A stretch of DNA of 52,644 nt, from positions 1 through 52,644 of IMG/VR virus record IMGVR_UViG_3300046028_005303; one strand, given 5' to 3'. Origin of the DNA: a virus. The translations under genes and the position numbers were made by a program. Shown here piece by piece: positions 6,244-52,644 of this stretch (within the stretch, counting starts at the first letter, position 1; every line of letters begins with the position of its first letter). Under the pieces are notes generated by a model. It was not told where the DNA came from. It ran no database searches and saw only the letters and a program-made list of their open reading frames with translations.

Positions 6244-9096
6244 ATGGAGAATTTAATACCTGAAAAAGAAGCAAGAGAATTATTGTTAAAATATGAAGGA
6301 TTTAACAATCAAATATTAGATTGGAAACTAAAAATGGTTACTAATGTAAAATATAATTTAACAAGAACACAATCTGAATATGTTATAAAATATTATAATG
6401 TTATACCAAAAATAGCTAAAAAATATATAACTATCACCAATAATTTTGCTGAGACTTTAATGAAAGATAAAAATTTATCTTCATTACCTGAAAAAATTTG
6501 GTGTGAAAAATTATTATGCGAAAGTGATAACGCTTACCATATATGGGGTAAATTAAATGAAAAACAAAATAATTACGCAATCTGGTTACCAAAATTTGCA
6601 ATAATTCAAGAAGAGAAAAAATTAAATAGAGTTATTGATTATTCACCTTATTCTCATAGGGCACCCATGAATCATCAAAAAGAAGCAATAGAAAAATTAT
6701 TATCAAATAATAAATTCATCTTAGCTGACGATATGGGCGTGGGTAAATTCTTATCAAATAATACATTGATTTACACAGAGTTAGGTGTTAAAAAAATGGG
6801 TGAAATTTTGGTAGGAGATAGGGTGATTGGTTCAAACGGTAATCCTTGTAATGTAATAGGTGTTTTCCCACAAGGAATAAAAGACACCTATAAAATAACA
6901 TTTAACGATGGGTATTCAATTATTTCTGGTGATGAACATTTATGGTCGGTCTCATCACCTAACTATGGTAAAAATACAAAAAATGAAAGATTAAAAAAAT
7001 CGTTAATTTTATCTACAAAACAAATGTTTGAAGGGGGGGTAATAACAATAAAAGGTGATGGATATAATTCAGAAAAAAATTATAACATTGAAACTTATTA
7101 TAAATCTCCAAACGGTAATAATAAATGGCAAATTCCAATTGTAAAACCAATAGAATTTAACAATAATAACGAATTACCGATAGATCCTTATTTATTTGGA
7201 CTTGGTTTAGGTGATGGGTCTTTTAATAAAAAAAATATAAGATTTAGTGTTCATAAAGACGATTATGATGAGTTATTTGAAAACTTTAATTTAAAAGAAA
7301 ATAAATCACAGGATAATAAGAGAAATGGTTATATTAATGTTGGGGACGTTCTATTTGATTTAAACATTGAAGATACTCGTTCTCATAATAAATTTATACC
7401 TGAGATATATAAATATTCGTCTATTGAGAACCGACTTGCAATATTACAAGGTTTAATGGATACAGACGGTCATTGTATGTTATCTAAAAATGGTGTTTTT
7501 AAAGGAACTGAATATTCAACAATTTCCGAAAAATTATGTGATGATGTGTGTGAAATCGTTCAAACACTAGGTGGAATTGCAAGAAAAAAATCAAGAAAAA
7601 GTTATTATAAAAAAGATGGTAAACGTGTAGAATGTTCAATATCTTATCGTGTAAATATAAAATTACCATCAGGGATGAATCCGTTTCGTTTAAAACGAAA
7701 GTCAGAAAGATATAATGAACCTCAAAAATATCCAACTGGTAGATATATCAAGAATATTGAAAAAATTGGTCAAGATGAATGTACGTGTATATCTGTTGAT
7801 GCACCTGATAAGTTATATGTTGCAGAACATTGTATTGTTACACATAATACCACATCTGCTATTATAGCTTCATTAGAGAGTGAATCAAAGAAAGTTTTAG
7901 TTATTTGTCCATCATCATTAAAAATAAATTGGTATAGAGAAATAAAAAATTATTCTGATAAAAATATATTAATCGTAGAAGGTAAAAATTGGGAACCAAC
8001 TTTTGATTTTTATATTATTAATTATGATATTTTAAAAAATTATCATAGTATGGAAAAGACGGAAAATATTGAATCATATAAGTTAATTGAAAATGAAAAA
8101 TTTGATTTAGTTATTATTGACGAGGCACATTATATTTCAAATCCTACTGCACAAAGAACTAAATTGATTAATGATTTGGTTAAGAATATCCCCAAAGTTT
8201 GGTTATTAACAGGAACACCAATGACATCAAGACCTATCAACTATTATAATTTATTAAAAATAGTTGATTCACCAATTGCGTTAAATTGGCAAGGTTATGT
8301 GAAAAGATATTGTGCGGGATATCAATTTAAAGTTGGGGGTAAAAAAATATGGAATACGAATGGTTCATCTAATTTAGATGAACTTAGAGAAAGAACTAAA
8401 AATATTGTTTTAAGAAGAATGAAAACAGATATTCTTGATTTACCTGAAAAGATGGTTAGTCCAATATTTTTAGATTTAACTAGTACGTTTTATAGTGATG
8501 AATTGGAAGATTTTATACGAATTTCAAAAGATAATAGGAATAAAGAATCTTTAACAGTTACAATAAATCGTTTAATGAAATTAAGACAAGTCATTGCATT
8601 TGAAAAAGTACCATATACTTGTGAGTTAATTGATAAAGTTATTGAACAAGGAAAAAAAGTTATTGTATTTACGAATTTCACATCAAGTTTAGATATGTTA
8701 CATGAAAAATATAAAAAAAATTCGGTAATTCTTGATGGTAGAATGTCAAAAGAAAAAAGACAACAAAGTGTGGATAAATTTCAAAATGATGACAAAACAA
8801 AAATATTCATATCAAATATTAAAGCTGGTGGTGTTGGAATTACATTAACAGCTGCAGAGGTGGTTATAATGAACGACTTATCATTCGTACCTTCTGACCA
8901 TTCACAAGCAGAAGATAGAGCTTACAGGTACGGTCAAAAAAATAGTGTATTAGTTTATTATCCTGTTTTTGAAAATACTATTGAAATGATTGTTTATAAT
9001 ATTTTACAAAAAAAGAAAAACATTATTGATCAAGTTATGGGTGATGGTGAATATGGTGAAAGTTTTGCCAATTCATTACTTAAGAGCCTCTTTTAA
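6244..9096 (+). CDS. SNF2-family DNA helicase/ATPase interrupted by an in-frame intein
   Basis: Superfamily 2 ATPase remodelling or unwinding DNA, probably filling a role like T4 UvsW in replication and repair. The ATG at 6244 is preferred over an in-frame TTG at 6235 that lies inside the promoter box. Host motifs: HQKEAI (Q-like), P-loop DDMGVGK^TT split by the intein after residue 168, IIDEAH (motif II), LTGTP (III), VIVFTNFTSSLDMLHEKYK, and GGVGITLTAAEVV with QAEDRAYRYGQ (V-VI, diagnostic for SNF2). Without the intein (residues 169-535) the host is 583 residues. The intein keeps the frame, so the gene is not broken. The gene's last 21 bases overlap the end of the convergent gene 9076-10068. 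Confidence 0.92.
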   Translation: MENLIPEKEARELLLKYEGFNNQILDWKLKMVTNVKYNLTRTQSEYVIKYYNVIPKIAKKYITITNNFAETLMKDKNLSSLPEKIWCEKLLCESDNAYHIWGKLNEKQNNYAIWLPKFAIIQEEKKLNRVIDYSPYSHRAPMNHQKEAIEKLLSNNKFILADDMGVGKFLSNNTLIYTELGVKKMGEILVGDRVIGSNGNPCNVIGVFPQGIKDTYKITFNDGYSIISGDEHLWSVSSPNYGKNTKNERLKKSLILSTKQMFEGGVITIKGDGYNSEKNYNIETYYKSPNGNNKWQIPIVKPIEFNNNNELPIDPYLFGLGLGDGSFNKKNIRFSVHKDDYDELFENFNLKENKSQDNKRNGYINVGDVLFDLNIEDTRSHNKFIPEIYKYSSIENRLAILQGLMDTDGHCMLSKNGVFKGTEYSTISEKLCDDVCEIVQTLGGIARKKSRKSYYKKDGKRVECSISYRVNIKLPSGMNPFRLKRKSERYNEPQKYPTGRYIKNIEKIGQDECTCISVDAPDKLYVAEHCIVTHNTTSAIIASLESESKKVLVICPSSLKINWYREIKNYSDKNILIVEGKNWEPTFDFYIINYDILKNYHSMEKTENIESYKLIENEKFDLVIIDEAHYISNPTAQRTKLINDLVKNIPKVWLLTGTPMTSRPINYYNLLKIVDSPIALNWQGYVKRYCAGYQFKVGGKKIWNTNGSSNLDELRERTKNIVLRRMKTDILDLPEKMVSPIFLDLTSTFYSDELEDFIRISKDNRNKESLTVTINRLMKLRQVIAFEKVPYTCELIDKVIEQGKKVIVFTNFTSSLDMLHEKYKKNSVILDGRMSKEKRQQSVDKFQNDDKTKIFISNIKAGGVGITLTAAEVVIMNDLSFVPSDHSQAEDRAYRYGQKNSVLVYYPVFENTIEMIVYNILQKKKNIIDQVMGDGEYGESFANSLLKSLF
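6748..7848 (+). other. Class 3-type LAGLIDADG intein in the helicase P-loop
   Basis: A 367-residue insertion between GVGK and TTSAI. It starts with Phe (FLSNNTLIYT), not Cys, Ser or Ala, and ends IVTHN before Thr+1. Seen: Trp after block B His (DEHLW), Cys at the block F position (CTCISVD) and Thr in block G (VTHN). This Trp/Cys/Thr set defines class 3 inteins, in which block F Cys replaces residue 1 as first nucleophile. Two LAGLIDADG motifs (PYLFGLGLGDGS; LAILQGLMDTDGH) indicate a homing endonuclease. It is clearly homologous over its whole length to the PhoH intein. Confidence 0.9.
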
Positions 9097-10068: not shown

Positions 10069-10071
10069 ACT

Positions 10072-10079
10072 CAAATATA
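10072..10079 (-). promoter_or_regulatory. Bacteroidota-type -7 box (TATATTTG) before gene 9076-10068
   Basis: The minus strand reads TATATTTG three bases before the ATG, in the 37-base divergent gap. No clear -33 TTTG stands at the usual distance. The same gap holds the late-type box of the gp13-like gene on the other strand. Confidence 0.4.
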
Positions 10080-10080
10080 C

Positions 10081-10090
10081 GATATTTATA
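10081..10090 (+). promoter_or_regulatory. Putative late promoter box (GATATTTATA) before gp13-like gene
   Basis: GATATTTATA ends 15 bases before the ATG at 10106. It is identical to the element before sheath, scaffold, fibre and gene 20499. Confidence 0.5.
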
Positions 10091-10105
10091 AGAATATATA
10101 AAATT

Positions 10106-11221: not shown

Positions 11222-11227
11222 AATATT

Positions 11228-11857
11228 ATGAACTTACAAGAACAAACATATAAGATGAAAAAACTCATGGGGTTAAAAGAATTAACCCTTGAAAATGATT
11301 CTAATGGGTTATCAAATGTTGAGATTCTTTACCATGGTAATAGAAAAGGAGATTTTCCACCAAAATTAAGAAGATTTGCTGGTGCTATATTCTTAACGTC
11401 AAACATTAATTTTGCAAAACAGTTTGCTGATGTGGACGATTTTCCTGAAGGTAAAGTATTTGAGGTTATTTTAAAAGATGGTATTAAATTATGTGACCCA
11501 TCAAAACCTGAAATAATGAAGGAATTTAATCTTAAAGATGTTTTACAAAATATGATAGATACCAATTATGTCGATTCAGTTAATGGAACAAAAATTAAAG
11601 AGGTTGTTGGTACAGGGTTTAAGGGATATGATTACGATTCAGATACGGAATTTGACATTAAAGATAAATCACAAAGTGTTTATTTTTATTTATGGAGAAT
11701 TAAAAATGGTGCTTGGAGAATTATTGAGTGTGAACCAATAATTAATGAAATAAAAAAACGTAATTACGATGGTTTTTTTATAATTGAAAGTGGTAGTAAA
11801 AACGTTGCGATATTTGATGAAAACAATATCCATAGTTTTAAATCACTTGATGTTTAA
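11228..11857 (+). CDS. ADP-ribosyltransferase-like protein
   Basis: A 209-residue protein with the layout of small ART-fold enzymes: EILYHGNRK (first strand with His), GAIFLTSNINFAKQFAD (the F-L-T-x-N strand and helix typical of ART folds), GKVFEVILKDGIKLCDPS, and the closing KRNYDGFFIIESGSKNVAIF with a late Glu (FDENN). Such enzymes move ADP-ribose from NAD to proteins; T4 carries Alt in the capsid and makes ModA/ModB. The N-terminus LQEQTYKMKKLMGLKE looks like a short targeting helix ending in an L-x-E site, so injection with the DNA is possible. It follows gp13-like by six bases and shares its stop region with the convergent polymerase gene. Activity is inferred. Confidence 0.55.
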   Translation: MNLQEQTYKMKKLMGLKELTLENDSNGLSNVEILYHGNRKGDFPPKLRRFAGAIFLTSNINFAKQFADVDDFPEGKVFEVILKDGIKLCDPSKPEIMKEFNLKDVLQNMIDTNYVDSVNGTKIKEVVGTGFKGYDYDSDTEFDIKDKSQSVYFYLWRIKNGAWRIIECEPIINEIKKRNYDGFFIIESGSKNVAIFDENNIHSFKSLDV

Positions 11858-14800
11858 AAATCAATAACATGAAAAGATAAATCACTTTCATTAGTCCCTA
11901 TAATTTCATCAGAATTACTTTTAATACTTTTTGCTTGTAAGTTTACAACTTTTCTATTATGGTCTATCCAATGTTTATCAACTAAATCGATACTATTTTC
12001 TACGTACATAAAGAAAGGATCACGTTTAACTCTATTCCAAAATGAAACTTCACTATCAGATAAAGTCATTACTTCGTCTAATTTATCTTGCCCATCTTCT
12101 TTTAGTGGAAAACCATTAACTAAATCACATTGAGTTTTTGTAAAGTACTGTCTATCTTTCGGGTCTTCTATAAGAATCTCATCACGAATCTCAGGTTTAA
12201 ATACCACAAGTAATGGTTCAATACGTTTATTGAAATTTGATAAATAACGAGGTACGTTATAATCTCCTTTTAAGTCTGGATTATTTAAAATATCTTTTTC
12301 TGAAATCATATAACAATTAACTCTAATCATTGATTTCATATTATCATCAGGTAAATTATCATTATTATTTTCCATATAATAACTTAAATCATCTTTTCTC
12401 CAACCACTTTTTAATTTATTTACTTTTTGTACATCACCATCTGATTTTTTGAAACTATTATTTACATAATAAATTGTTTCACCTAAACCAGCGTGGTAAT
12501 CATTTAACAAAATAAGTTCCATATGTGCTTGTCTAGACATTAACGAACCTGATTTGGTTGTTTTTTTAACATATTCTTTATAATCATCAATTGATTGTTT
12601 AACACGTGCTTTATTTGCTATTTTAGATAATGGTATTTCTTTATTATAAATTTTATTCACATAATCGTAATATAATTCAATAAATGAAACTCCGTCACCA
12701 TTTAACAAATGTTTTAAACCTTCATCCAAAAATTCTACAACATATTGTTGTAATTTTTTAGATTTAATTGTATTTCCTGTTAATTTAATTTTTTCTTTTC
12801 CTTTCTTTAAAACTTTTATTATATAATTTTTTCTCGAGACATTAATACAAGATGGTGCAACATAATCAATGTCAAGACCCATTTCATCCCTCATAAAAAT
12901 ATCATTAAATTCAGCCGTATCTGCCTCGATACCAATATACTCTTTTCCTTTTATAACTAATTCATTTAAACCTTTACCGATATATCTATGTTCATCCACA
13001 TCTTCCGGTGTTTCAAAATTAACTCCATCGGTGTTTTTTAATAAAATACCACCTATACCACCAACAAATGTACCATCCTCAGTAGATATGTCATAAACAT
13101 ACCTCTCTTTATTTGATTGTATTTCATTAAACCATATTTCATCAGAATTCCTTTCTGATTTTTTATCATTTATTGTATAATATTTCCCATTTCTGTGTGT
13201 ACCTAAAATTAATGAAGTAATTTCAGGTTTATCTTTTCTAATTGAAATTTTATATTCAATTTTTAATCTTTTTAGTATATAAGAAATACCTGATAAACAT
13301 ACTTTAGATTTTTGTGTAATATCTGTTGCCTCATTAAAATTTTCTCCCCATCCATCAGCTAAATAAAATCCATCCATAAATGATTTTATAATTTCATCAT
13401 CACCATTTAATATATCTGTAGGTATTTTTTTCTGTCTATATGAAGTATAACAATTTTCTGAAAACCACTTACATAGTAAAACTTTTGATGTTTTCAATCT
13501 ATATATACCACTATGTGTTCTATAATCTTTAATTGTACATTCAATTCCATATTCTTCAGATATAATTTTTTTCATTTCATTTAATATTTCTAAAGAAGAA
13601 TTATTTAAATGAAACTCACCCTTTTTATTAAAATAACAAACTAAACCATTTTTCTTACTACTGTATGTTCTTTTAACGTTCTTATAATATGAAGAACCAT
13701 CACCAACAAAAAATCCAATTAATTTAGACATATTTAATGAAATAGTTTTTTCAGATTTAAGTACTGGTATATCAATAATATCTATTTTACTACCTCTTTC
13801 TAAAGAGGTAGGTTTTATCTGTACACCATTTTGAAATACTGAATGGTCGGAAGTACAATTAACTAAACGATCCTTAGTTACTAATTTATGTATTGGTTTA
13901 TTTGTACCATGTTTATATACGTAATTAATATTTTTCCAACCAGAACCAGTTAAAACTTCATATTCCTTCATTGAAAAATCTCTTAATCCATCATCAGTTT
14001 TATAGTTACTATTTTCATCAAATAAATCACATATTGGTAATATATCTAAATTTCCTTCAATGTCCTTTAAAAAAACAGGTGTATCATATTCAACACTGTC
14101 CATAACGAGTGGTTTATATTGTTTTTTCATGTAAAACATAATCACCATTCTTAAAAATTGACGACCAACACAAGTAATCGTTTCACCCATATTCATATCA
14201 CCCCAAGGAAATACTTGAGGTGCAGATAATGAACCAAAATATGCGTTAATAAAAATTTTGATAGGTAATTGTTTTCTATCATACATTTCAGATTTTACTG
14301 GATCTATTTTAGCTAACTCACTTGTTAATCTTTTATATTTAATACGAATATTTCTAAAATATTTTAACATTGATTTTTGAACACCCATAATATCACAATC
14401 GGGGAAAACATCATATACAAGTTGTATAGAAGGATAAAGTGAAGCGTAGTCAAATTTTACAATATTTTTTGAATATCCAACTGTTAATAATCTAGATAAA
14501 CCACCTGTTATTGGTCTTTTTTCATCTTTACTTGGTATTGCTAATTTATTTTCATAACTCCACGCTAACATTATTATTTTCCATAACGTAGCGGTACCCA
14601 TTGTTGATACCCTTTCATAGGTTGTTGGTATTAATTTAGAAAGTAAAAATGTTGACTGTGAAAATGAATCGTCAACAACCATTGTTTCATATAAATCGTC
14701 ATCAAGATATTGTTCTATAATTTTTTTACCTGTCCATATTTCATATTTTCCAGGATACCTCTCTAATAAATTTTCTGTACCTACATCACCTATTTGTTTA

Positions 14801-15840
14801 TAATTTCCTGTTTTTGGATTTAAATAATAACTTTCATTCTCCAAATATATTTTGGATATTTTTGAACCGTCTACGTAAACACGATTTGTTTTTTCTTTCT
14901 CTAAATATTTTGTGATATATTTTAATCCCCATGATTTTATTTCTGAATTGATAGCCTGAGCTCTACGAACTGAATGACATATATCTATAATATTAAATCC
15001 CCAAATTATGTGTTGTGTATAGGGTTCAATTTCATTTGCTAGTTTTAAAAAACCTTCCTTTTCTTTCATCCCTTTCGATGTGAAAATTTGGGTTAAACCT
15101 TTCACATCTACATTTAATATAGAGGCTCTTTTTAATATAAATGGCCAGTCAAATGACGCTGAATTATATCCTGATATAATTGTTGGTTTTATTTCTTTAA
15201 TTAAAGAAAAGAATTTTTCAATACATTTTTTTTCACCATCTTCACCAAACGCATTAATAGTTTCTTTTAAATTTCTATTATCTTTAACACCAATTAATAT
15301 AATTTTATCAACATTTGGATCTAAACCTGTTGTCTCAATATCAAATACAAACCGATGCACATCAGAATAATCTTCAATATCTTTAAAAAGTCTTTTATTT
15401 TTTTGGATTAAATATTGTTCAACAGGTGTTAAAATAGTGAACAGATGTTTCACTTTTTCATTCCAAGGATCAATTCCACCTTGTTTGAAAAAATTAATTA
15501 AATTAGTATATCCTTTTATTGATTTTACTATATAAGTTAAACCTTTTTCTAAACGGTCATTACCACCTGTTTCTAATTTTTCAATTAGAATACCGTGTTC
15601 ACCCATTTTATTCTTTTGTTGGGATTTGTTATTTTGATAGAAATTTAATCCACTTAAATTACCAACCCAAAGAAAAGGTGTAAACGTGTCTTGTTTAATA
15701 TGTTTCCCTTTTTCAGGGTCTTGAATTATTTTATATATTTTATTTGTCTTATAGTCATATTCAACACTAACAATGTATTTTTCAGGATCACCACCATTTA
15801 AGAAGTTTTCAATAACTTCTTGAGATATTATTTTTGACAT
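11854..15840 (-). CDS. Family B DNA polymerase (gp43-like) interrupted by an in-frame intein
   Basis: Replicative polymerase with 3'-5' proofreading. Exonuclease motifs: DIET (about 167-170) and NSASFD (226-231). Polymerase motifs: A, DYASLYPS (464-471); B, KIFINAYFGSL (528-538); C, MD^TDG, split by the intein after residue 581; then KKGKEKIKLTGNTIKSKKL after motif C (the basic region of family B enzymes). Without the intein (582-936) the host is 973 residues, close to T4 gp43 (898). The leader before the ATG carries a 6-bp hairpin and a TATATTTG box. The stop codon overlaps that of the convergent ART-like gene. Five small tail genes and the fibre lie upstream on the same strand. Confidence 0.95.
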   Translation of the reverse strand: MSKIISQEVIENFLNGGDPEKYIVSVEYDYKTNKIYKIIQDPEKGKHIKQDTFTPFLWVGNLSGLNFYQNNKSQQKNKMGEHGILIEKLETGGNDRLEKGLTYIVKSIKGYTNLINFFKQGGIDPWNEKVKHLFTILTPVEQYLIQKNKRLFKDIEDYSDVHRFVFDIETTGLDPNVDKIILIGVKDNRNLKETINAFGEDGEKKCIEKFFSLIKEIKPTIISGYNSASFDWPFILKRASILNVDVKGLTQIFTSKGMKEKEGFLKLANEIEPYTQHIIWGFNIIDICHSVRRAQAINSEIKSWGLKYITKYLEKEKTNRVYVDGSKISKIYLENESYYLNPKTGNYKQIGDVGTENLLERYPGKYEIWTGKKIIEQYLDDDLYETMVVDDSFSQSTFLLSKLIPTTYERVSTMGTATLWKIIMLAWSYENKLAIPSKDEKRPITGGLSRLLTVGYSKNIVKFDYASLYPSIQLVYDVFPDCDIMGVQKSMLKYFRNIRIKYKRLTSELAKIDPVKSEMYDRKQLPIKIFINAYFGSLSAPQVFPWGDMNMGETITCVGRQFLRMVIMFYMKKQYKPLVMDSVEYDTPVFLKDIEGNLDILPICDLFDENSNYKTDDGLRDFSMKEYEVLTGSGWKNINYVYKHGTNKPIHKLVTKDRLVNCTSDHSVFQNGVQIKPTSLERGSKIDIIDIPVLKSEKTISLNMSKLIGFFVGDGSSYYKNVKRTYSSKKNGLVCYFNKKGEFHLNNSSLEILNEMKKIISEEYGIECTIKDYRTHSGIYRLKTSKVLLCKWFSENCYTSYRQKKIPTDILNGDDEIIKSFMDGFYLADGWGENFNEATDITQKSKVCLSGISYILKRLKIEYKISIRKDKPEITSLILGTHRNGKYYTINDKKSERNSDEIWFNEIQSNKERYVYDISTEDGTFVGGIGGILLKNTDGVNFETPEDVDEHRYIGKGLNELVIKGKEYIGIEADTAEFNDIFMRDEMGLDIDYVAPSCINVSRKNYIIKVLKKGKEKIKLTGNTIKSKKLQQYVVEFLDEGLKHLLNGDGVSFIELYYDYVNKIYNKEIPLSKIANKARVKQSIDDYKEYVKKTTKSGSLMSRQAHMELILLNDYHAGLGETIYYVNNSFKKSDGDVQKVNKLKSGWRKDDLSYYMENNNDNLPDDNMKSMIRVNCYMISEKDILNNPDLKGDYNVPRYLSNFNKRIEPLLVVFKPEIRDEILIEDPKDRQYFTKTQCDLVNGFPLKEDGQDKLDEVMTLSDSEVSFWNRVKRDPFFMYVENSIDLVDKHWIDHNRKVVNLQAKSIKSNSDEIIGTNESDLSFHVIDF
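13033..14097 (-). other. LAGLIDADG intein in polymerase motif C (pol-c site)
   Basis: A 355-residue insertion between VMD and TDGVNF, inside the catalytic YxDTD motif. It starts SVEYDTPVFL (Ser1) and ends GGILLKN before Thr+1. The block F/G region reads RYVYDISTEDGTFVGGIGG. Two endonuclease motifs: LIGFFVGDGSS and FMDGFYLADGW. The residue before the final Asn is Lys where most inteins have His. Block B has the usual TSDHSVF. This site is a known hot spot for inteins in archaeal and viral family B polymerases. Confidence 0.92.
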
Positions 15841-20442: not shown

Positions 20443-20446
20443 TATA

Positions 20447-20456
20447 TATAAATATC
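20447..20456 (-). promoter_or_regulatory. Putative late promoter box (GATATTTATA) before the tail fibre
   Basis: The minus strand reads GATATTTATA four bases before the fibre ATG. It stands back to back with the same element on the plus strand at 20470-20479 in a 56-base divergent gap. Confidence 0.45.
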
Positions 20457-20469
20457 TTTCATTTCTTTT

Positions 20470-20479
20470 GATATTTATA
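20470..20479 (+). promoter_or_regulatory. Putative late promoter box (GATATTTATA) before gene 20499
   Basis: GATATTTATA ends 19 bases before the ATG at 20499, in the divergent gap shared with the tail fibre. Confidence 0.45.
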
Positions 20480-20498
20480 AATATTAAAAAATAATAAA

Positions 20499-26525: not shown

Positions 26526-28322
26526 TTGAGAAAATCAAATTTGAATTCAGAAAATAATACTGAAAATAAAACACCTAAGAAAGAAAGAATTAGGCAAATA
26601 ATAAAAGAACCAAAAGAAAAATTTTTAACAACAAATCAAGAAGAATATTGGAAAATTTTAGGTGAAAATGAAATTACCTTATGTTTTGGACCTGCTGGTG
26701 TGGGAAAAGCACAGCCTTTAGATTCCATTATTTATACTCCTGATGGTGAAAAAACTATGGGGGATATTGAAGTTGGTGATTATGTGATTGGTGAAGATGG
26801 TAAAAAAACTAAAGTGATTGCCACACATCCTCAAGGAATTAAACCTATTTATAGAGTTTTATTTAATGATGGTTCTTTTACTGAAACATGTAATGAACAT
26901 TTATGGTTTACACAAACAGAAAAAGATAGAAATAATCGTACAAAAATTAAAGGTGAAAGATTTAAAAATCCATTAAAAGGGAGTGTTAAAGAATTATCAG
27001 AAATAAGAGAAAGTATTATTTCTAGTCGTGGATATAAAAACCATACGATTCCAATAACTAAACCTGTAAATTTTAATGAAGTTCCTCTTTTTGTAAAACC
27101 ATATTTAATGGGTATTTTATTGGGTGATGGTGGACTTTCACAGGAAAGAATAACATTTACTACTGCTGATACTGAAATAGTTGATAATATCAATTATTTA
27201 ATTCCTGAAACTTGTGTTCTTAAAGAAGTACCATCTGCTAAATATGGTTATTCAATTGTTTCTAAACGAATAGAGACTTCTAATAATTTAATTCTCGATG
27301 AAATTAGAGAGTGTAGGTTAAATAGTATAAAAAGTATAAATAAATTTATACCTAAAAAATATCTTTTTAATTCAGTAGAAAATAGAATAGAACTTTTACA
27401 AGGATTATTAGATAGTGATGGATATGTAAATAGAAATGGAACATCAGTTTTTTACACAACAACATCAGTAGAACTAATGAATGATGTTAAATTTTTAGTA
27501 AATAGTTTAGGTGGTGTAGTCAATATCACTAATAAAAAACCTTTTTACAGAGATAAAAATGGTAATAAAATTATTTGTAATATCGCATATACATTAACAA
27601 TAAATCTTCCAAACGATATAAAACCATTTAAACTCAAAAGAAAATTAGATTTAGTAAAACCAAAAACTAAATACCCCCCAAAAAGATTTATAACTAGTAT
27701 TGATTATGTTGGAGATAAAGAAGCTAAATGTATAACTATTGATTCTGAAAACCAATTATATTTAACTGATAATTTCATAGTGACACATAACTCGTACATT
27801 GCCATGAAAAAAGCAGTGACATTATTATGGGACGATAAAAATAAGTATGAAAAAATTATAATAGTAAGACCAGCAGTAGAAGCTGAAGAAAAGTTAGGAT
27901 CATTACCAGGTAATTTAGAAGAAAAACTTGACCCATATATTTATCCGTCTTATTATTTATTGAATAAAATTATTGGTAAAGAATGTAGAGAAAAATTAAA
28001 ACAAGAAGGTTTTATTGAAGTAGCTGCTTTAGCTTTCATGAGAGGATGGAATGTTGATAATACGATTCTTATATTTGAAGAAGCACAAAATACAACACCT
28101 TCACAAATGAAACTTTTACTAACAAGAATAGGATATAATTCAAAGTTTTTTATTTCAGGTGATTTAGAACAATCAGATAAATTTAAAGATAAAACAAAAA
28201 CAGGATTATATGATGCTAAGGTGAGATTAGAGAATATAAAAAATGTTGGTTTTTTTGAATTTGATACAAAAGATATTGTTCGTAATCCTATAATTGGCGA
28301 AATATTAAAAAGGTATGATTAA
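26526..28322 (+). CDS. PhoH-like ATPase interrupted by an in-frame intein
   Basis: P-loop ATPase of the PhoH family, common in T4-like phages; its role there is unsettled (RNA or nucleotide metabolism is proposed). The start is TTG at 26526, as no ATG occurs early in the frame. Host motifs: FGPAGVGK^SYIAM (P-loop, split after residue 61), IIIVRPAVEAEEKLGSLPGN, FMRGWNVDNTILIFEEAQN (Walker B), SGDLEQSD and the C-terminal DIVRNPIIGEIL. Without the intein the host is 237 residues, a normal length. The N-terminal 55 residues are a basic, Asn/Lys-rich extension. Confidence 0.93.
   Translation: MRKSNLNSENNTENKTPKKERIRQIIKEPKEKFLTTNQEEYWKILGENEITLCFGPAGVGKAQPLDSIIYTPDGEKTMGDIEVGDYVIGEDGKKTKVIATHPQGIKPIYRVLFNDGSFTETCNEHLWFTQTEKDRNNRTKIKGERFKNPLKGSVKELSEIRESIISSRGYKNHTIPITKPVNFNEVPLFVKPYLMGILLGDGGLSQERITFTTADTEIVDNINYLIPETCVLKEVPSAKYGYSIVSKRIETSNNLILDEIRECRLNSIKSINKFIPKKYLFNSVENRIELLQGLLDSDGYVNRNGTSVFYTTTSVELMNDVKFLVNSLGGVVNITNKKPFYRDKNGNKIICNIAYTLTINLPNDIKPFKLKRKLDLVKPKTKYPPKRFITSIDYVGDKEAKCITIDSENQLYLTDNFIVTHNSYIAMKKAVTLLWDDKNKYEKIIIVRPAVEAEEKLGSLPGNLEEKLDPYIYPSYYLLNKIIGKECREKLKQEGFIEVAALAFMRGWNVDNTILIFEEAQNTTPSQMKLLLTRIGYNSKFFISGDLEQSDKFKDKTKTGLYDAKVRLENIKNVGFFEFDTKDIVRNPIIGEILKRYD
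26709..27791 (+). other. Class 3-type LAGLIDADG intein in the PhoH P-loop
   Basis: A 361-residue insertion between AGVGK and SYIAM. It begins AQPLDSIIYT (Ala1) and ends IVTHN before Ser+1. It shows Trp after block B (NEHLW), Cys at the block F position (AKCITID) and Thr in block G (VTHN), the class 3 set. Endonuclease motifs: PYLMGILLGDGG and IELLQGLLDSDGY. It aligns along its length with the helicase intein, including MGDIEVGDYVIG, HPQGIKPIYRVLFNDG, NKFIP and PFKLKRK stretches. Confidence 0.92.
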
Positions 28323-45484: not shown

Positions 45485-47344
45485 TTATTTATACAAGAAA
45501 TTATCTAATTTATTCATTAAATTTTTCATCTTATCTATAGACTGTGGTTTTTCCTCAGTTGATTCCTCATAATTATTTCTATCATCCAAATTTTTAAATA
45601 TATATGCACCAGGTGTTGATGGTGATGACACTAAATCAAAACAAACTAATTCAAAATCATCTTGAACAATATTTTGTCCTTTTATATTTTTTAAAGAACC
45701 AACACCTCTTGATGAAATACCTAATGTTGCTCCATTCATTAAAAGCATAGCCGCTTGGTCTCCCTTAGTACTAACTATACCCATTTTTCTCCACCCTGGT
45801 GATGTAAACAGTTTAATTTTCCCCATTAAAATTTTACCGTCCCACCATGTTTCAGTTATCGAATGAGAAACTCTATCTAAATCTATTAAACTTGAATTAC
45901 CGGTCCAATGACATTTACCATTACTTTTCACATAATATGTGTGATTTGGGACATCAACTGAATAAACATAATCATCAAAATCAATTTCAGTTGTTTTAAT
46001 CATTCGACTATCCATATATATTCCTTTAGTTTTTGATAATGTTAAAAACCACATATCATGACTATTTTCACCTTTAATTAAACGTGGAGTACCATTATCC
46101 TCAGTAATATACCTATCAAATTTTCTATTTTCATAACGTATATTCCCAAAACCACCACTTTTAATTAATAATTCTTGTAAATCTAAAATTAATTGTTTTG
46201 ATGTTGAAAAAACATCCGATTGTTTATATTTTCGACCAACGGTTCTTCCATCACCCAATTTAAACCAATTTAATAAATAGTTAAAATATTTTGGTGATGA
46301 GTTTTTTAAATCACTTGGAATATATTTTTCGTTCGCCTTACCTAATGGTAATAAATATCTCCATAATCGTCTATCATGTATTTTGAATGTTGTTGTACCA
46401 TTTTTAGAAACATATTTATTTATATTAAATGGTAATAAATCACATAACTCTTCTATTAATAATGTTGTTTCCTGTTTCTTTTGTGATACACCAATACCGT
46501 AACCGTGGTCTGAAGATTCATAATATGTCACATCACCGTTAGATAAAACACATTTACGTTTTTTTATTTTACTTGAATTTGTATATCCCTCAGATAAAAA
46601 TATACCCATAAATGACATAAAAATATCCATAGGTATCTTCACATCTTGTTTATATGTTAAACGTATTGTTTCACTATCTCTAATATTAAAATCAGAATCA
46701 GTACATCCTTTTAATGTAAAATATTCAACATTATTATTGGTATCAATATTACCTTTTTTAGGTATATAAAAATTAGATAATGAATTACCTTTTTGTAATG
46801 TTTCATGAATTTCTTGTGACGTGATAAATTTTCGTTTATTATTTCGTTGGTTAGTTAAAGGAAATTTATGGTTCGGAGTAACCATAGTATCAATAAATCT
46901 ACCTTTAAGGTTAATCATCTTACCTTTATATTGGTGTTTAACTGTTGAATATATTTGTTTTAATTCAATGACACCGTTATCGTTTAATGTGTATATTTTT
47001 TCAAACTCATCAATTTCTTTAATATTTTTCCAACCAGTTTCAGTTAAAATATCAACATCACCAGAGTGGCAGGATGGGTGATTCAATTCACTTAACGCGC
47101 CACCTTTCCTTATTATGTTTTGATATTTTTCGTTTTCCCTCTTTAATAATGTTTCAGGATAAATACGACCATTTTTATTTGGTGTATCAAACTTTTGTAA
47201 AACAGCATGTAATACCACATCTTCAAAAAAATTGGTATCTTTCATTTCAGATATAATCTTTTTATTATCATTTGGGGAAACATGACCCGCATCGTATTCA
47301 ATTAAAAGTTTCCTTCCGTCTTTAAATGTATATTCTTTTTCCAT
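45485..47344 (-). CDS. Prohead maturation protease (gp21-like) interrupted by an in-frame intein
   Basis: Serine protease that degrades the scaffold and trims capsid proteins at (L/I)xE sites. ATG 47344 is chosen over a GTG at 47362. Host motifs: VVLHAVLQKFDTPNKNGRIY (conserved N-x-N-x-R-x-Y start), GGALSELNHPS with the catalytic His at residue 89, split by the intein right after Ser91, then SLIDLDRVSHSITETWWDGK, and ATLGISSRGVGSL with the catalytic Ser. The end (PQSIDKMKNLMNKLDNF) is helical. Without the intein (92-483) the host is 227 residues; T4 gp21 has 212. The intein splits the protease between its catalytic His and Ser, so splicing must occur for head maturation. Confidence 0.93.
   Translation of the reverse strand: MEKEYTFKDGRKLLIEYDAGHVSPNDNKKIISEMKDTNFFEDVVLHAVLQKFDTPNKNGRIYPETLLKRENEKYQNIIRKGGALSELNHPSCHSGDVDILTETGWKNIKEIDEFEKIYTLNDNGVIELKQIYSTVKHQYKGKMINLKGRFIDTMVTPNHKFPLTNQRNNKRKFITSQEIHETLQKGNSLSNFYIPKKGNIDTNNNVEYFTLKGCTDSDFNIRDSETIRLTYKQDVKIPMDIFMSFMGIFLSEGYTNSSKIKKRKCVLSNGDVTYYESSDHGYGIGVSQKKQETTLLIEELCDLLPFNINKYVSKNGTTTFKIHDRRLWRYLLPLGKANEKYIPSDLKNSSPKYFNYLLNWFKLGDGRTVGRKYKQSDVFSTSKQLILDLQELLIKSGGFGNIRYENRKFDRYITEDNGTPRLIKGENSHDMWFLTLSKTKGIYMDSRMIKTTEIDFDDYVYSVDVPNHTYYVKSNGKCHWTGNSSLIDLDRVSHSITETWWDGKILMGKIKLFTSPGWRKMGIVSTKGDQAAMLLMNGATLGISSRGVGSLKNIKGQNIVQDDFELVCFDLVSSPSTPGAYIFKNLDDRNNYEESTEEKPQSIDKMKNLMNKLDNFLYK
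45896..47071 (-). other. LAGLIDADG-type intein in the prohead protease
   Basis: A 392-residue insertion between NHPS and SSLIDL. It starts CHSGDVDILTETGW (Cys1, block A) and ends YVKSNGKCHWTGN before Ser+1; block B is MVTPNHKFPL and block F VYSVDVPNHTYYV. The residue before the last Asn is Gly, not His. Endonuclease motifs are FMGIFLSEGYT and LLNWFKLGDGRT; the first has Glu in place of the usual Asp. It differs from the other inteins in the window by eye. Confidence 0.9.
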
Positions 47345-47376
47345 ATTTAATAAATAGTTCACAGAAATTTATTATA

Positions 47377-47386: not shown

Positions 47387-47389
47387 AAA

Positions 47390-47931: not shown

Positions 47932-47953
47932 ACATATAAAGTATTAAGATATT

Positions 47954-48706
47954 TTAAAGTAAACCTTCTTTAAGTTCTAATAATTTAAAGTAATTATATT
48001 TCGATAATTCTTTTTCATTTATTTGTTTTTTAACGTTACTAAGTTTTTCTATTAACGAATTATCATTTGACTCATTTAAGATATTTTCTATTTTACTATT
48101 TAATTCAAATTTCAAATGACTTGTCTCATTAATTAATGTTTCTTCATTCATTGACATAATATCTTTAAATTTTTTCTTTTGATCTTCATTTAAAAAATCA
48201 CCGTATTTTATATTAAAGTTACTTACTAATACATTGTTCAGTAATGAAAAATTTTCAATCTGAACATTTGAAAGTCCATCTTTTTTAATTTCTTTTTCTT
48301 TCATTAAGAAATTAATAAATTTTTCTTTCGATTCAAATTTAGTATTAATGTTATTAATATTATGTTCTTCAGATAATGTATCTAACCATTCGTACAATTC
48401 GTTCTTTTCAATAACTACATCTTTTAAAATTTTATCTAATTTTTTACAATCCGTATTTATTGTTTTCATTTTTTGAATGAAATGAGGTTCCAAAGTTTCA
48501 ACAAATAATCTTGCATTATCTTTTTGTGCAATATGTGTTGTTTCCATATCTTCATAAAATTTATATACTTCAACCAAATTTTTATTAGACTTTAATTTTT
48601 TTATTAAGTCTTTTAATTCTTTCTTATTACCTGAATTGTAAGCTTCGGTTAATTTAACCAGTACTTTTGTTTTTAATTCACCAAATTTTGTCATATTATT
48701 CTTCAT
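47954..48706 (-). CDS. Putative prohead core/assembly protein downstream of portal
   Basis: A 250-residue, almost wholly helical charged protein (TKFGELKTKVLVKLTEAYNS; KELKDLIKKLKSNKNLVEVY; NETSHLKFELNSKIENILNE). Coiled-coil composition and position directly after the portal gene suggest a head-core component in the place of T4 gp67/gp68; the evidence is positional. Two starts are possible: ATG 48706, which overlaps the portal end, or ATG 48694, one base after the portal stop. The latter gives the start TKFGELK. Possible L-x-E cut sites are present near the end. Confidence 0.6.
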   Translation of the reverse strand: MKNNMTKFGELKTKVLVKLTEAYNSGNKKELKDLIKKLKSNKNLVEVYKFYEDMETTHIAQKDNARLFVETLEPHFIQKMKTINTDCKKLDKILKDVVIEKNELYEWLDTLSEEHNINNINTKFESKEKFINFLMKEKEIKKDGLSNVQIENFSLLNNVLVSNFNIKYGDFLNEDQKKKFKDIMSMNEETLINETSHLKFELNSKIENILNESNDNSLIEKLSNVKKQINEKELSKYNYFKLLELKEGLL

Positions 48707-51700
48707 TTAAAATATTTTTTAGTTTATTTTCTATTTCATAAATATTCTTTTGTGCTTTATTTACGTCAAATAATTCACTTAATTCATCACCTTCACCTAA
48801 CATATTTAATAAATTTCTTTTCTTTGTTGATTCGGCTAATGGTGCTGAAGTTTCAGTAGATGGTGGTGTTGAAGAACCTCCCATATCCATACCACCCATT
48901 TCACCACCAGCATCTGTATTTTGTGATTTTTCTAACTTATCTCTTTCCTCTTTAGAAATACCATATTTTGAATCAACATCATCAAAAACACCTGAACGTT
49001 TAATTACATTTTGTGTGTTTTGTAATTCAATACCCATTGCTCTTTCTAACCTTTGTTGTTGTAAATCAAGTAAAACTTCATTGTCACTCATACCTAAAAT
49101 ATTTTTCTTAGCCCAAGTATGTGAAACAGGTAAAATACCTAATTGTGAATTATCTGATGTTGCATCTTTATATAGTAATATTTTTTCTTTCCATTGTTCT
49201 ATTCTTAATAAATCAGATTGTGCTGATGGATTTGTCAAAGAAAGAGTAAAATTATCTAATTCATCTTCCATTCCAAGAAGATAAAGATGCATTAATGCTA
49301 TTTTATTTAACTCCTGAACTAATGATTTTTGTATTCTATTAATTGTTCTAGCGAAACGGATATCCATTAACGCTAATTGTTTACCATCACCAACAACTTC
49401 TTCAAATCCTAAAAATGCTTTAGGAATACGAAGAGCCGCCAACATTTTCTTTTGAATGTATTCGATATCGGCAATCTCACCTAAATTTTGTGCTCCTGGT
49501 AATGTTTCTATTGGGTTAGTTTGAGTAGCGTCACGAACAGGAATAAAATAATCTTGGTCTACTGCCATTTGATTATATCTCATATCTATTTGTCCATTCC
49601 TTGAATCAACTATTTGGTCTCTTTTAAATTTATTAGCAACACGTTGAACATAAGATTCAATGTCTTTATCATCCATATTACCAACAAATACTTTAAAAAC
49701 CCTTCTTTCGGGCGCTCTGGTATTGTGTACTGGAATATTATTTGCAATAAAATTATGTTCCTCATGTTCTACACTAATATCATAAACTTTTTCTTCACCC
49801 CATTCTGATATGTTAATAATATTTTCAGTTAAGGGGGTAATTAGTTCACTAATCGTAACCTCATATGAATAAGTTTCTTTCATTCTACGACCAGATTCGA
49901 TTTCATGACCACCTTCTCGAAAACGTGTTTTGATATGACCTGAATTTAATCCCATTCCTGACCAAAGCTCTTTAATATCTTCAATAAGTTTTTTATTACA
50001 CAGGGAGATTGTGGTGAACATTGTTCCTTTTGGTGTGTGTCGAATACATCCGTCAGCATCCATTAAACCCTCCATAAATGATTTTTTAATATCGTATTCT
50101 TGTTGAAATACCCATTTTGGAATTCTTTTATTGTGTGCTCCTTTTATGTAACCTAAATCAATTAAAATATCTTTTAATCTTTTAGAACTAACTGAGTATG
50201 ATGTGTATTTTCTATTATTACTGATATTAAGTGATATTCTAGATTCGTATTTTTTAAACAATTGATAATATTTTTCATTAACTTCTTCATCACTTCCTTC
50301 GGCAAAACCTACAACATCACTTGAAATAAAACCATCTCCTATCATGAAACCAAAAAGTTTAGCAAAATCAGTATCAACATAATCAGGTAAGTTCAGTGTG
50401 TTTGGTTTAATTTCACCTTTAGTATATGTTACTAAATGTGTTGGTTGAATATTAAACTCTTCACAAACCATCAATGCAGTTAAATGAGGTAACCCTTTAA
50501 TCCCTTTACCACCATACAAAAATTGTCTAATCCTTTTTATGTCCCCACATTTTCTCATTTTTTCGGAAATGGAATCGTTAAATTCTTTAGACCTAAATTT
50601 ATCCACCCCTTCTTTTGTTAAATAAGAATAAAGAACCTCACCATTACGATTGATTTTTTTTGGTATTACGGGTAGATTATTTACATTAGTGTTAATTAAT
50701 TTATGTTTTTTAATCATTAAATCTTTCGCATCAACATACTTTAACACATTCTCATCCTGAACTAAAATTGGGTGGGTTTCTGTACAAATAATTTCATTAT
50801 GTAAAGATTTTAATTTTAAAACTTTTTTAATTCCATTATCTTTAACGTAGGTGACTTTATTAGGGATAAGGTTTTGACTTTTATCAAAGGTTAAAATAGT
50901 GTCACCTTCTTGAATATCTTTTATGTATTTGTAACCATCGATGGTCCTTACTCTTGTGTCACCCACTAAACATGTTCTATAAATTAACATCGCGTCTTCA
51001 GCTAGAAGTAATTGTTTCCAAATTCTTCTAATCTTATCTAACATACTGGTTCCATATGGAAGTTTCCTATCATCACCCAACAATCTAAAATGTGCCATTT
51101 CCCATGCTTGGAATTCTAACTCTTTATTAGTCCATTGAAATCTTAGTTCCCTTGTTGGTATATTATTAGTTCTTTGATTCGGTGATTTAGATTCTCTCCC
51201 TTCAATTCTTTGTATTTCAATATTTGGTAATTGTTGACAACCAATAATACCTTTTTCAGGATCTATTTTTAAGTAAACAAAATTATCACCATACTTACAA
51301 ACACCTCTGGTCCACATTTGTAAATTTGTGTTTAAATCTAATCTATTTAAAAAAAGGTCTTCTAAAATTGTCTTAACTCTAGTTGATTCTGAAAAAATAG
51401 TTAAAATTTCACCTTTTTCAGAAAGTGTTGTAGATTCTTCAGCATATATATCTAAGGCTGCCGATATTTCTGGAGTATTATGAGAAAAAATAGTATCTGT
51501 TGCAAAATTTTTATAACCAGGAACAGTTAAATCATATACAGGTACTACTCCATATGGTTCAATTGAAACGATTTTATGATTTACAATAACTTCGTCACTA
51601 TTTTTTTTCCTACCAGCTTTTGATTTTTTCATACCATAAGCTTCCATAAAAGTACCCCAAGTTTTGTAACCACCACTTCTTAATGTTGATATTAATTTAG

Positions 51701-52644
51701 TAGTTTTCACACCTAAATAATCTGATGTTGATTGTAATGTTTTATTAATTTTAGCTGATTGTATTATCAAATCCCAAGGTATCACTTTAAAGTTCATTGA
51801 ATCCCTATCTTCTGATTGTGGAATGAATCTTTTTATTCCATACACTTCTAAAAAAAATAACCAATTTTTAAATCCATTTAATTTTAATTCATCTTGTAAT
51901 TTTGCTACCGAAAATCCTAAATATTTGGCAGTACTTTCTTGAGTTCTACATAATCTTGCTGCGTCAACAAGTTTTTTAAAATCCAAATCAATATAAGCTG
52001 GGTTATTTTTACCTTTTCTTTTTCCTTCCCATTTCATTTTACCTTTTCTTTTCCCAACTTCAGACATTTTTTTTCTATAATCAGGATTTGCCCAAAGTTT
52101 TTCATTATTCAATCTTACATGATATGCTCTATGTTCTGAGCGTTTCATTATTTTCAAATTATTAGGTAAATTATTTTTTCCGTTAAAATCAATATGATGA
52201 ACTTCTTCATCTTTATTAATCTTTGTTTTATAAAACCATTCTGAAATTAAATTATGTTCAGATATCCAACCATGATGCCCTTCTTTTGAATTACAGGTAT
52301 ATATCCAATTATATTTTTCATTATTATAAAATGATTTTCTATAGAATGGCATCATTGAGTCTCCTGGTTTTAAATTTTCCACTTCACAAAAAACACCATC
52401 TCTTTTTAAGAACCTATGCCCATACGTTGCAATAATATGTGAATTATCATCAAAAATTATTTTATAGGTCATTTCATCTCTTGTGTAATGTGCATTTCTT
52501 GCTATTGCTGGAACAACTTTTTTAGTGTTATGGTCGTAAGCATATGTGATAAATTCATGGTCTCTACCTTTATCTGCAAGTTCTTTAATTGTTACAAACC
52601 CGTCAGGTGTAGCAATTTTTGTTTCTCCAAAAATTGAAAATTCC
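48696..52644 (-). CDS. Portal protein (gp20-like), 5' end beyond window, interrupted by two inteins
   Basis: Forms the twelve-fold ring at the head vertex through which DNA is packaged. The frame continues past the window edge (the ATG at 52472 is inside an intein), so the gene is partial. Host parts: TPEISAALDIYAEESTTLSE after the first intein; LPYGTSMLDKIRRIWKQLLL and AEDAMLIYRT before the second; TRAPERRVFKVFVGNMDDKD, AQNLGEIADIEYIQKKMLAA and LRIPKAFLGFEEVVGDGKQL after it. These are the best conserved parts of gp20-type portals. The C-terminus has a Gly/Met-rich linker (GGEMGGMDMGGSS) and an acidic helix. Confidence 0.95.
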   Translation of the reverse strand, partial: EFSIFGETKIATPDGFVTIKELADKGRDHEFITYAYDHNTKKVVPAIARNAHYTRDEMTYKIIFDDNSHIIATYGHRFLKRDGVFCEVENLKPGDSMMPFYRKSFYNNEKYNWIYTCNSKEGHHGWISEHNLISEWFYKTKINKDEEVHHIDFNGKNNLPNNLKIMKRSEHRAYHVRLNNEKLWANPDYRKKMSEVGKRKGKMKWEGKRKGKNNPAYIDLDFKKLVDAARLCRTQESTAKYLGFSVAKLQDELKLNGFKNWLFFLEVYGIKRFIPQSEDRDSMNFKVIPWDLIIQSAKINKTLQSTSDYLGVKTTKLISTLRSGGYKTWGTFMEAYGMKKSKAGRKKNSDEVIVNHKIVSIEPYGVVPVYDLTVPGYKNFATDTIFSHNTPEISAALDIYAEESTTLSEKGEILTIFSESTRVKTILEDLFLNRLDLNTNLQMWTRGVCKYGDNFVYLKIDPEKGIIGCQQLPNIEIQRIEGRESKSPNQRTNNIPTRELRFQWTNKELEFQAWEMAHFRLLGDDRKLPYGTSMLDKIRRIWKQLLLAEDAMLIYRTCLVGDTRVRTIDGYKYIKDIQEGDTILTFDKSQNLIPNKVTYVKDNGIKKVLKLKSLHNEIICTETHPILVQDENVLKYVDAKDLMIKKHKLINTNVNNLPVIPKKINRNGEVLYSYLTKEGVDKFRSKEFNDSISEKMRKCGDIKRIRQFLYGGKGIKGLPHLTALMVCEEFNIQPTHLVTYTKGEIKPNTLNLPDYVDTDFAKLFGFMIGDGFISSDVVGFAEGSDEEVNEKYYQLFKKYESRISLNISNNRKYTSYSVSSKRLKDILIDLGYIKGAHNKRIPKWVFQQEYDIKKSFMEGLMDADGCIRHTPKGTMFTTISLCNKKLIEDIKELWSGMGLNSGHIKTRFREGGHEIESGRRMKETYSYEVTISELITPLTENIINISEWGEEKVYDISVEHEEHNFIANNIPVHNTRAPERRVFKVFVGNMDDKDIESYVQRVANKFKRDQIVDSRNGQIDMRYNQMAVDQDYFIPVRDATQTNPIETLPGAQNLGEIADIEYIQKKMLAALRIPKAFLGFEEVVGDGKQLALMDIRFARTINRIQKSLVQELNKIALMHLYLLGMEDELDNFTLSLTNPSAQSDLLRIEQWKEKILLYKDATSDNSQLGILPVSHTWAKKNILGMSDNEVLLDLQQQRLERAMGIELQNTQNVIKRSGVFDDVDSKYGISKEERDKLEKSQNTDAGGEMGGMDMGGSSTPPSTETSAPLAESTKKRNLLNMLGEGDELSELFDVNKAQKNIYEIENKLKNILNEE
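49722..50972 (-). other. LAGLIDADG intein 2 of the portal gene
   Basis: A 417-residue insertion between LIYRT and TRAPERR. It starts CLVGDTRVRT (Cys1) and ends NFIANNIPVHN before Thr+1, with block B CTETHPILV and block F KVYDISVEHEEHNF, all canonical. Endonuclease motifs: AKLFGFMIGDGF and FMEGLMDADGC. It looks like a complete, active standard (class 1) intein. Confidence 0.95.
51477..52637 (-). other. HNH intein 1 of the portal gene with tandem helix-turn-helix repeats
   Basis: A 387-residue insertion beginning SIFGETKIATPDGF (Ser1) after Glu-Phe and ending ATDTIFSHN before TPEIS. Instead of LAGLIDADG it has an HNH nuclease (EVHHIDFNGKNNLPNNLKIM), a NUMOD3-like basic stretch (MSEVGKRKGKMKWEGKRKGK) and two similar helix-turn-helix repeats: TQESTAKYLGFSVAKLQDEL with a following GFKNWLFFLEVYG, and TLQSTSDYLGVKTTKLISTL with GYKTWGTFMEAYG. 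The exact first residue is inferred because only two N-extein codons are in the window. Confidence 0.88.

What the first reader, a model, noticed from the sequence alone, without database searches (positions are those of the whole stretch)
6748..52637. Six inteins in five genes within one 52-kb phage segment
Helicase, DNA polymerase, PhoH, prohead protease and portal (twice) carry in-frame inteins of 355-417 residues. All six have endonuclease motifs, five LAGLIDADG and one HNH. Each sits in a catalytic or highly conserved motif (two P-loops, polymerase motif C, next to the protease catalytic His, two portal core sites). Replication, DNA packaging and head maturation of this phage thus depend on protein splicing. 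Such density in one viral genome is unusual as far as I know.
Basis: partly seen in the sequence, partly recalled or inferred. Interest (0 to 1): 0.85.

Follow-up and report, generated by a model that had tools for sequence, protein, structure and literature searches.

The report
Phage genome loaded with ten inteins
A freshwater T4-like virus of bacteria has at least ten self-removing protein inserts (inteins) in six genes, four of them in the single motor gene that packages its DNA, while a strain of the same virus species has only one of them, so these selfish elements have recently spread through an essential gene set.

Summary
Confirmed, and larger than reported. The six inteins have exact junctions and are open and in frame; five could be tested for selection and all are under purifying selection (dN/dS 0.09-0.34). 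At every site dozens of related IMG/VR contigs are empty with a gap of exactly 0 bases. A contig identical to the window extends it by 13.8 kb. There the large terminase (TerL) gene carries four more inteins, one of them an AceL-TerL-type split intein with a free-standing endonuclease-like gene between its halves. Spliced, TerL is 590 aa and aligns without gaps to an intein-free relative. The total is at least ten inteins in six genes over about 53 kb. Contigs of the same species (95.4% DNA identity) are empty at all nine other sites. SNPs cluster within 60 nt of the junctions (4.8% against 1.6%, permutation P = 0.0001), the footprint of homing. A 162-kb relative has about 14 inteins, five split; most other large relatives show none. 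Each element is of a known kind; the load and within-species spread exceed anything I found published. Splicing was not tested.

The parts
6748..7848 (+). Class 3 intein, 367 aa, in the P-loop of an SNF2-type helicase (GVGK|F...THN|T); LAGLIDADG endonuclease
   Evidence: Junctions; PF14528; WCT triad; model matches PI-SceI and 6bs8; occupied 68 / empty 50 contexts (query-biased)
6235..9096 (+). Host gene: SNF2-family helicase (953 aa precursor, 586 aa spliced)
   Evidence: PF00176, PF00271; phrog_62
13033..14097 (-). Class 1 intein, 355 aa, in PolB motif C (D|S...LLKN|TDG); LAGLIDADG
   Evidence: PF14528 and TIGR01445; 8 occupied / 82 empty contexts
11854..15840 (-). Host gene: family B DNA polymerase (1328 aa precursor, 973 aa spliced)
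   Evidence: PF03104, PF00136; phrog_262
26709..27791 (+). Class 3 intein, 361 aa, in the P-loop of PhoH (GVGK|A...THN|S); LAGLIDADG
   Evidence: PF14528; best solved match class 3 DnaB intein 6bs8; 57 empty contexts
26526..28322 (+). Host gene: PhoH-like ATPase (598 aa precursor, 237 aa spliced)
   Evidence: PF02562
45896..47071 (-). Class 1 intein, 392 aa, in the prohead protease beside LNHP (S|C...WTGN|S); divergent LAGLIDADG
   Evidence: same-site relatives L012, L032; 3 occupied / 76 empty contexts
45485..47362 (-). Host gene: prohead core serine protease, gp21-like
   Evidence: PF03420; phrog_207
49722..50972 (-). Class 1 intein, 417 aa, portal site 2 (IYRT|C...VHN|TRAPER); LAGLIDADG
   Evidence: PF14890, PF14528; 95% identical intein in L007; 3 occupied / 87 empty contexts
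51477..52637 (-). Class 1 intein, 387 aa, portal site 1 (MEF|S...SHN|TPEIS); HNH endonuclease
   Evidence: PF14890; phrog_7545; 6 occupied / 78 empty contexts
48696..52644 (-). Host gene: portal protein gp20, cut by the window end two residues before portal intein 1 (full N-terminus in L008)
   Evidence: PF07230; full protein. The TerL gene with four further inteins follows beyond the window, in L403

Best explanation
The inserts are genuine inteins, most of them selfish elements that carry their own homing endonuclease, which have accumulated to an extreme load in one strain of a freshwater T4-like phage. Each is translated in frame with its host protein and then excises itself by protein splicing: class 1 chemistry from Cys1/Ser1 for portal, protease, Pol and TerL, and class 3 chemistry from an internal block-F Cys for the helicase and PhoH, leaving an exact native protein. 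At the DNA level the endonuclease of each element cuts an empty allele in a co-infecting phage and repair copies the element in with a short flank. In TerL one intein is split: the N-half (TerL-N plus a 30-aa IntN) and the C-half (a 108-aa IntC plus TerL-C) are separate proteins that must join by trans-splicing, with a free-standing endonuclease-like gene between them. Shown: anatomy, exact empty sites, conserved splicing residues, purifying selection, strain polymorphism and co-conversion footprints. Inferred: that all ten splice, that the endonucleases cut, and that the phage depends on splicing.
For: Exact in-frame junctions and gap-0 empty sites at every site. Spliced TerL is 590 aa and aligns without gaps to the intein-free 590-aa TerL, 553 identical; two +1 residues differ from it as the needed Cys (A->C, V->C). 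Splicing blocks intact in all ten; WCT triad across 78 helicase inteins. HINT, intein and LAGLIDADG/HNH families; fold match to PI-SceI and a class 3 intein. dN/dS 0.09-0.34 for helicase, Pol, protease and both portal inteins. Same-species contigs G005/G006 lack nine of the ten. SNPs within 60 nt of nine junctions 47/987 against 110/6933 elsewhere, P = 0.0001, not enriched against an outgroup. At portal site 2 the first 30 nt downstream resemble an occupied relative more than the empty twin, reversing further out. Helicase intein 78% identical between contigs with 99% identical exteins. The ORF between the TerL halves is reduced to a 65-aa remnant in G010 while the split intein persists.
Against: No splicing, cleavage or homing was measured. 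The Pol (Lys) and protease (Gly) inteins lack the usual penultimate His, and one TerL intein ends in Gln; such penultimate variants occur among mycobacteriophage inteins (PMC5050341) but lower certainty for individual members. The ORF between the TerL halves matches no Pfam or PHROG family. Selection on the PhoH and TerL inteins was not measured. The same-species comparison uses two contigs from one metagenome.
Confidence: 0.93

Rival explanations
1. The inserts are native domains of the host proteins or non-splicing insertions that stay in the mature proteins.
For: All are in frame and uninterrupted; splicing was not measured.
Against: Dozens of relatives lack them with gap 0 at each site; they sit inside P-loops and polymerase motif C, where a retained 360-aa block would be expected to destroy activity; intact nucleophile, Asn/Gln and +1 residues.
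Confidence: 0.02
2. Assembly artefact: metagenome contigs joined wrongly.
For: All sequences are metagenome contigs.
Against: A second contig is identical over about 42 kb and others agree locally (L009, L323); orthologous inteins at the same codons in other phages.
Confidence: 0.01
3. The inteins are real but kept as regulators: conditional splicing gates packaging and head maturation.
For: Clustering in late morphogenesis genes (TerL, portal, protease); conditional splicing is reported for a mycobacterial DnaB intein (PMC6195587, abstract); purifying selection.
Against: Sporadic distribution within one species, endonuclease domains kept, co-conversion tracts: all expected of selfish homing without function.
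Confidence: 0.05
4. The strain is a degenerating, partly dead lineage in which some inteins no longer splice.
For: Heavy load; non-canonical penultimate residues in Pol and protease; Gln end in one TerL intein.
Against: No stops or frameshifts in any precursor; purifying selection; the near-identical strain recovered in several contig sets; the Pol and protease variants recur at the same site in independent phages.
Confidence: 0.03

Closest known systems
Mycobacteriophage inteins (Kelley et al. 2016, PMC5050341)
   Same: Inteins in TerL, portal, helicase and other phage genes, class 1 and class 3, in active centres, with penultimate Gly/Lys variants
   Different: No ten-intein phage or four-intein TerL in the passages read; this is a T4-like phage with sites in PolB motif C and the prohead protease, and with a within-species empty/occupied comparison
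crAss-like Delta/Zeta phages (Yutin et al. 2021, PMC7886860)
   Same: Dense mobile elements in core genes; a TerL with two inteins
   Different: Reported maximum is 3 inteins per genome, with up to 14 introns; here at least ten inteins and no Rfam intron match
AceL-TerL / GOS-TerL / Cat atypical split inteins (reviewed in PMC11766414)
   Same: Split intein in TerL with IntN of 30 aa and IntC of 108 aa, Cys1/Cys+1; sequence match to CatC 6dsl_B E=6e-10
   Different: Here seen in a phage gene context, with an endonuclease-like gene between the halves and three other inteins in the same TerL
Fractured genes with split inteins (Dassa et al. 2009; known to me from memory and as a citation in PMC3653736, not readable here)
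   Same: N-half with IntN, endonuclease ORF, then IntC with C-half
   Different: Combined with nine contiguous inteins in one strain; a relative has about five such split genes
[quoted passage not shown]
   Same: Inteins in PhoH and ribonucleotide reductase; TerL with an intein and an intron
   Different: Fewer inteins; no empty-site or class analysis in the passages read

Membership tests
Intein (class 1) with homing endonuclease | Precise in-frame insertion; intein-free homologues with an exact empty site | tested here: met
   Gap 0 at every site, 50-87 distinct empty contexts each; spliced TerL aligns without gaps to the intein-free TerL
Intein (class 1) with homing endonuclease | Nucleophile C/S/T at position 1, terminal N or Q, C/S/T at +1 | tested here: met
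   Met for Pol, protease, portal 1, portal 2 and the four TerL inteins. Not met at position 1 by helicase (F) and PhoH (A), which are therefore filed as class 3
Intein (class 1) with homing endonuclease | HINT splicing domain and LAGLIDADG or HNH endonuclease | tested here: met
   PF14890, PF14528, TIGR01443/1445 and HNH PHROGs; protease below curated cut-offs but supported by same-site relatives
Intein (class 1) with homing endonuclease | Protein splicing occurs | not testable with these tools
   Needs expression or mass spectrometry
Intein (class 1) with homing endonuclease | Endonuclease cuts the empty allele and homes | not testable with these tools
   Indirect only: co-conversion SNP excess and polymorphism within a species
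Class 3 intein | Trp B:12, Cys F:4, Thr G:5 triad | tested here: met
   Helicase and PhoH inteins: EHLW, CISV/CITI, THN; 75 of 78 helicase relatives show xHLW and all end THN; W66, C347, T365 conserved in 42 sequences
Class 3 intein | No position-1 nucleophile required | tested here: met
   Residue 1 in 78 helicase inteins: F24, G19, A14, C10, M4, S4, L3
Class 3 intein | Internal Cys performs the first step | not testable with these tools
   Needs mutagenesis
AceL-TerL/Cat atypical split intein | Very short IntN, long IntC, in TerL, C1/C+1 | tested here: met
   30 aa and 108 aa; published values 25/104, 30/104 and 37/115 (PMC11766414)
AceL-TerL/Cat atypical split intein | Sequence kinship | tested here: met
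   6dsl_B CatC, phmmer E=6e-10
AceL-TerL/Cat atypical split intein | Trans-splicing | not testable with these tools
   Needs co-expression
Fractured-gene arrangement (Dassa 2009) | Endonuclease gene between the halves | tested here: inconclusive
   ORF 9865-11055 of L403 lies between the halves; no Pfam or PHROG match. A weak match to the endonuclease at window 2-997 and a remnant at the same place in G010 favour it

The most novel reading that the evidence does not exclude
The stacked inteins work together as a timing device: TerL (three cis and one trans event), portal (two) and protease (one) can only become active after slow, possibly condition-dependent splicing, so head maturation and DNA packaging of this phage are gated after translation. 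Nothing here excludes it and nothing here shows it.
Probability: 0.05. Interest if true: 0.9.

Novelty: new variant of a known kind. Interest (0 to 1): 0.64.

Why it matters
I found no published phage with this many inteins (the highest count per genome in the papers read is 3, plus introns), and a close relative here has about 14. The within-species contrast of ten against one, with junction-proximal SNP tracts, is a natural experiment on how fast inteins invade and how long the homing conversion tract is. It shows four inteins in one TerL, one of them of the AceL-TerL split type used in protein engineering, seen here in a phage gene with an endonuclease-like gene between its halves. The IMG/VR contigs supply many new natural inteins, including class 3 and split ones, for use and for testing whether splicing limits phage development.

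Tried and rejected
Group I/II introns as the cause: no Rfam match in the window or L403, and all inserts are open in frame. A seventh intein inside the window: a whole-gene insertion scan against relative G011 found none; the dUTPase and glycosyltransferase sites that are occupied in G010 are empty in the window. Completing the strain's genome through a DnaB search: contigs from neighbouring samples were found but none could be assigned to this strain. AF2 of the protease intein with three sequences was poor (pLDDT 62), so its fold matches count little. A first co-conversion test with simple 30-nt bins was replaced by a rotation permutation on spliced genes without the helicase. Occupancy numbers for the helicase site are biased because the search query contained the intein. 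The intein counts for relatives G010, G012 and G045 come from reading ORFs and were not all checked against empty sites. Several paper searches returned nothing on inteins per phage genome.

Full report
What the window is. The record is a 52,644-base virus fragment of a low-GC (24-34%) T4-like phage: portal gp20, prohead protease gp21, capsid gp23, family B polymerase, PhoH, SNF2 helicase, dUTPase and tail sheath. Nearest named relatives of the portal are Microcystis phage Mel-JY01 and Flavobacterium phage immuto at about 38-40% amino-acid identity, both without an insert where testable. Hundreds of closer relatives are uncultured IMG/VR contigs.

The six inteins. Junctions were set by sequence and checked against relatives. 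Helicase K|FLSNN...VTHN|TTS, PhoH K|AQPLD...VTHN|SYI, Pol D|SVEYD...LLKN|TDG, protease S|CHSGD...WTGN|SSL, portal 1 F|SIFGE...FSHN|TPE, portal 2 T|CLVGD...PVHN|TRA. Distinct junction contexts in relatives, occupied/empty: helicase 68/50, Pol 8/82, PhoH 1/57, protease 3/76, portal 1 6/78, portal 2 3/87; every empty site has a gap of exactly 0 (read). For PhoH the only occupied context is this strain's own. The helicase count is inflated because the query contained the intein. Same-site inteins in other phages are 55-95% identical without stops, and dN/dS is 0.09-0.34 for helicase, Pol, protease, portal 1 and portal 2.

Two splicing classes. Helicase and PhoH inteins have no nucleophile at position 1 (F, A) but have Trp in EHLW, Cys in CISV/CITI and THN at the end. 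That is the class 3 Trp-Cys-Thr triad described for mycobacteriophage inteins (PMC5050341). Across 78 helicase inteins all end THN, 75 show xHLW, and residue 1 varies freely; in a 42-sequence alignment C347 and T365 are invariant and W66 nearly so. The AF2 model of the helicase intein (pLDDT 91) matches PI-SceI over its whole length and the class 3 DnaB intein 6bs8 in the splicing domain (1.1 A over 69 columns for the best chain). The other four are class 1, with S1 or C1. Pol has a penultimate Lys and the protease a penultimate Gly, variants that also occur in mycobacteriophage inteins (PMC5050341). In INPHARED the class 3 type is widespread (about 750 of 50,697 records, the best at 33-38% identity). 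Pol, portal and protease types have only 1 to 16 distant relatives.

Four more inteins in TerL. Contig G001 (IMGVR_UViG_3300046006_002827) is identical to the window over about 42 kb with one mismatch and extends 13.8 kb past its right end. There TerL is encoded in two ORFs with an endonuclease-like ORF between: ter1 (438 aa, L403 6751-8064) and ter2 (449 aa, 8092-9438) separated by nine extein residues; a split intein, IntN 30 aa (9760 to the stop) and IntC 108 aa (11045-11368), around ORF 9865-11055; and ter4 (411 aa, 11522-12754). Removing all four gives 590 aa that align without a gap to the 590-aa intein-free TerL of G011, 553 identical; at two junctions the +1 residue differs from G011 (A->C, V->C), as splicing requires. 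The split intein matches CatC (6dsl, E = 6e-10) and has the proportions of the AceL-TerL/Cat/GOS-TerL family (PMC11766414). All ten inteins lie within about 53 kb.

Recent gain by homing. Contigs G005 and G006, from one other metagenome, align to 43,379 window bases at 95.4% identity, i.e. the same species by the usual 95% rule. They are empty at portal 1, portal 2, protease, PhoH, Pol and all TerL sites and occupied only at the helicase, where the intein is 83% identical although the flanking exteins are about 94-100%. Around nine junctions, mismatches within 60 nt are 47/987 (4.8%) against 110/6933 (1.6%) elsewhere in the same genes; rotation permutation P = 0.0001. Against a more distant relative there is no such excess, so the junction regions are not simply mutable. 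At portal 2 the first 30 nt downstream match an occupied relative (93%) better than the empty twin (87%), reversing further out (88% against 100%). This is what co-conversion during homing predicts. In G010 the ORF between the TerL halves survives only as a 65-aa remnant, 46% identical to the end of the intact one, while the split intein persists, as in a homing cycle after endonuclease loss.

How unusual. In a 162-kb relative (G010) I count about 14 inteins: Clp, TerL x2, portal x2, protease, PhoH, dUTPase, glycosyltransferase, Pol, SNF2 helicase, DnaB and NrdA x2; five are split with an endonuclease-like ORF or its remnant between the halves. G045 has about 8 and G012 about 6; the 484-kb huge-phage record LR756508.1 about 7-9 by HMM matches. 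Nearly all of the 27 other relatives of 100-310 kb (G013-G039) gave no match with either intein family at E <= 0.01, G018 being the exception. Among papers read, the highest count per phage genome is 3 inteins with up to 14 introns (PMC7886860). The library is open-access only, so higher published counts may exist. The counts for relatives come from reading ORFs and HMM matches and are approximate.

Mechanism. Shown by sequence: exact insertions, intact splicing blocks, endonuclease motifs, purifying selection on five of the six window inteins, recent polymorphism, junction-flank conversion. Inferred: splicing in vivo, DNA cutting, and dependence of the phage on splicing. A regulatory role is possible but not needed to explain the data.

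Verdict. The finding is real and understated. The parts are known kinds; the extreme combined load, the four-intein TerL and the within-species spread are what is new.

Noticed in passing
window 2-997 (+): Free-standing homing endonuclease (phrog_3339, E=1.2e-113), cut by the window start; one more mobile element in this genome.
   Followed up: partly
window 25914-26498 (+): dUTPase without an intein, while G010 has a split intein with an endonuclease-like ORF at the matching place (VVD|CVPSG...CLHN|CGYRGE).
   Followed up: partly
window 24215-25435 (+): Glycosyltransferase without an intein; G010 has one after GWLGGS, and the window, G005, G011, G012 and G045 are empty with gap 0.
   Followed up: yes
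window about 41.75 kb; G005:24120-24653: The intein-poor strain G005 has an extra stretch of about 1 kb with a free-standing LAGLIDADG ORF that the window strain lacks.
   Followed up: no
window 1085-1229: Maps twice in contig G002 with a 49-bp shift: a short tandem repeat of different length in the two contigs.
   Followed up: no
L012 portal, after PYGT: A third portal intein site (PYGT|CLKYNT...VVHN|SMLDK) is used in G010; the window is empty there.
   Followed up: partly
window 17089-20541 (-): Virion-like protein (phrog_10356) with a long Pro/Thr-rich repeat; its antisense strand has a long open frame (18860-19414) that is probably only a by-product.
   Followed up: no
window 51477-52637 (-): The portal-1 intein has Ser at position 1 and two copies of a C-terminal repeat of roughly 60 residues, while same-site inteins in L012, L032 and L060 have Cys1 and are about 67 residues shorter.
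   Followed up: partly
L003 (LR756508.1, 484 kb huge phage): Unannotated public record with about 7-9 inteins of its own, with matches to five of the six window inteins.
   Followed up: partly
window 11228-11857 (+): Weak match to an ADP-ribosyltransferase family of polyvalent proteins (PF18760, below cut-off).
   Followed up: no
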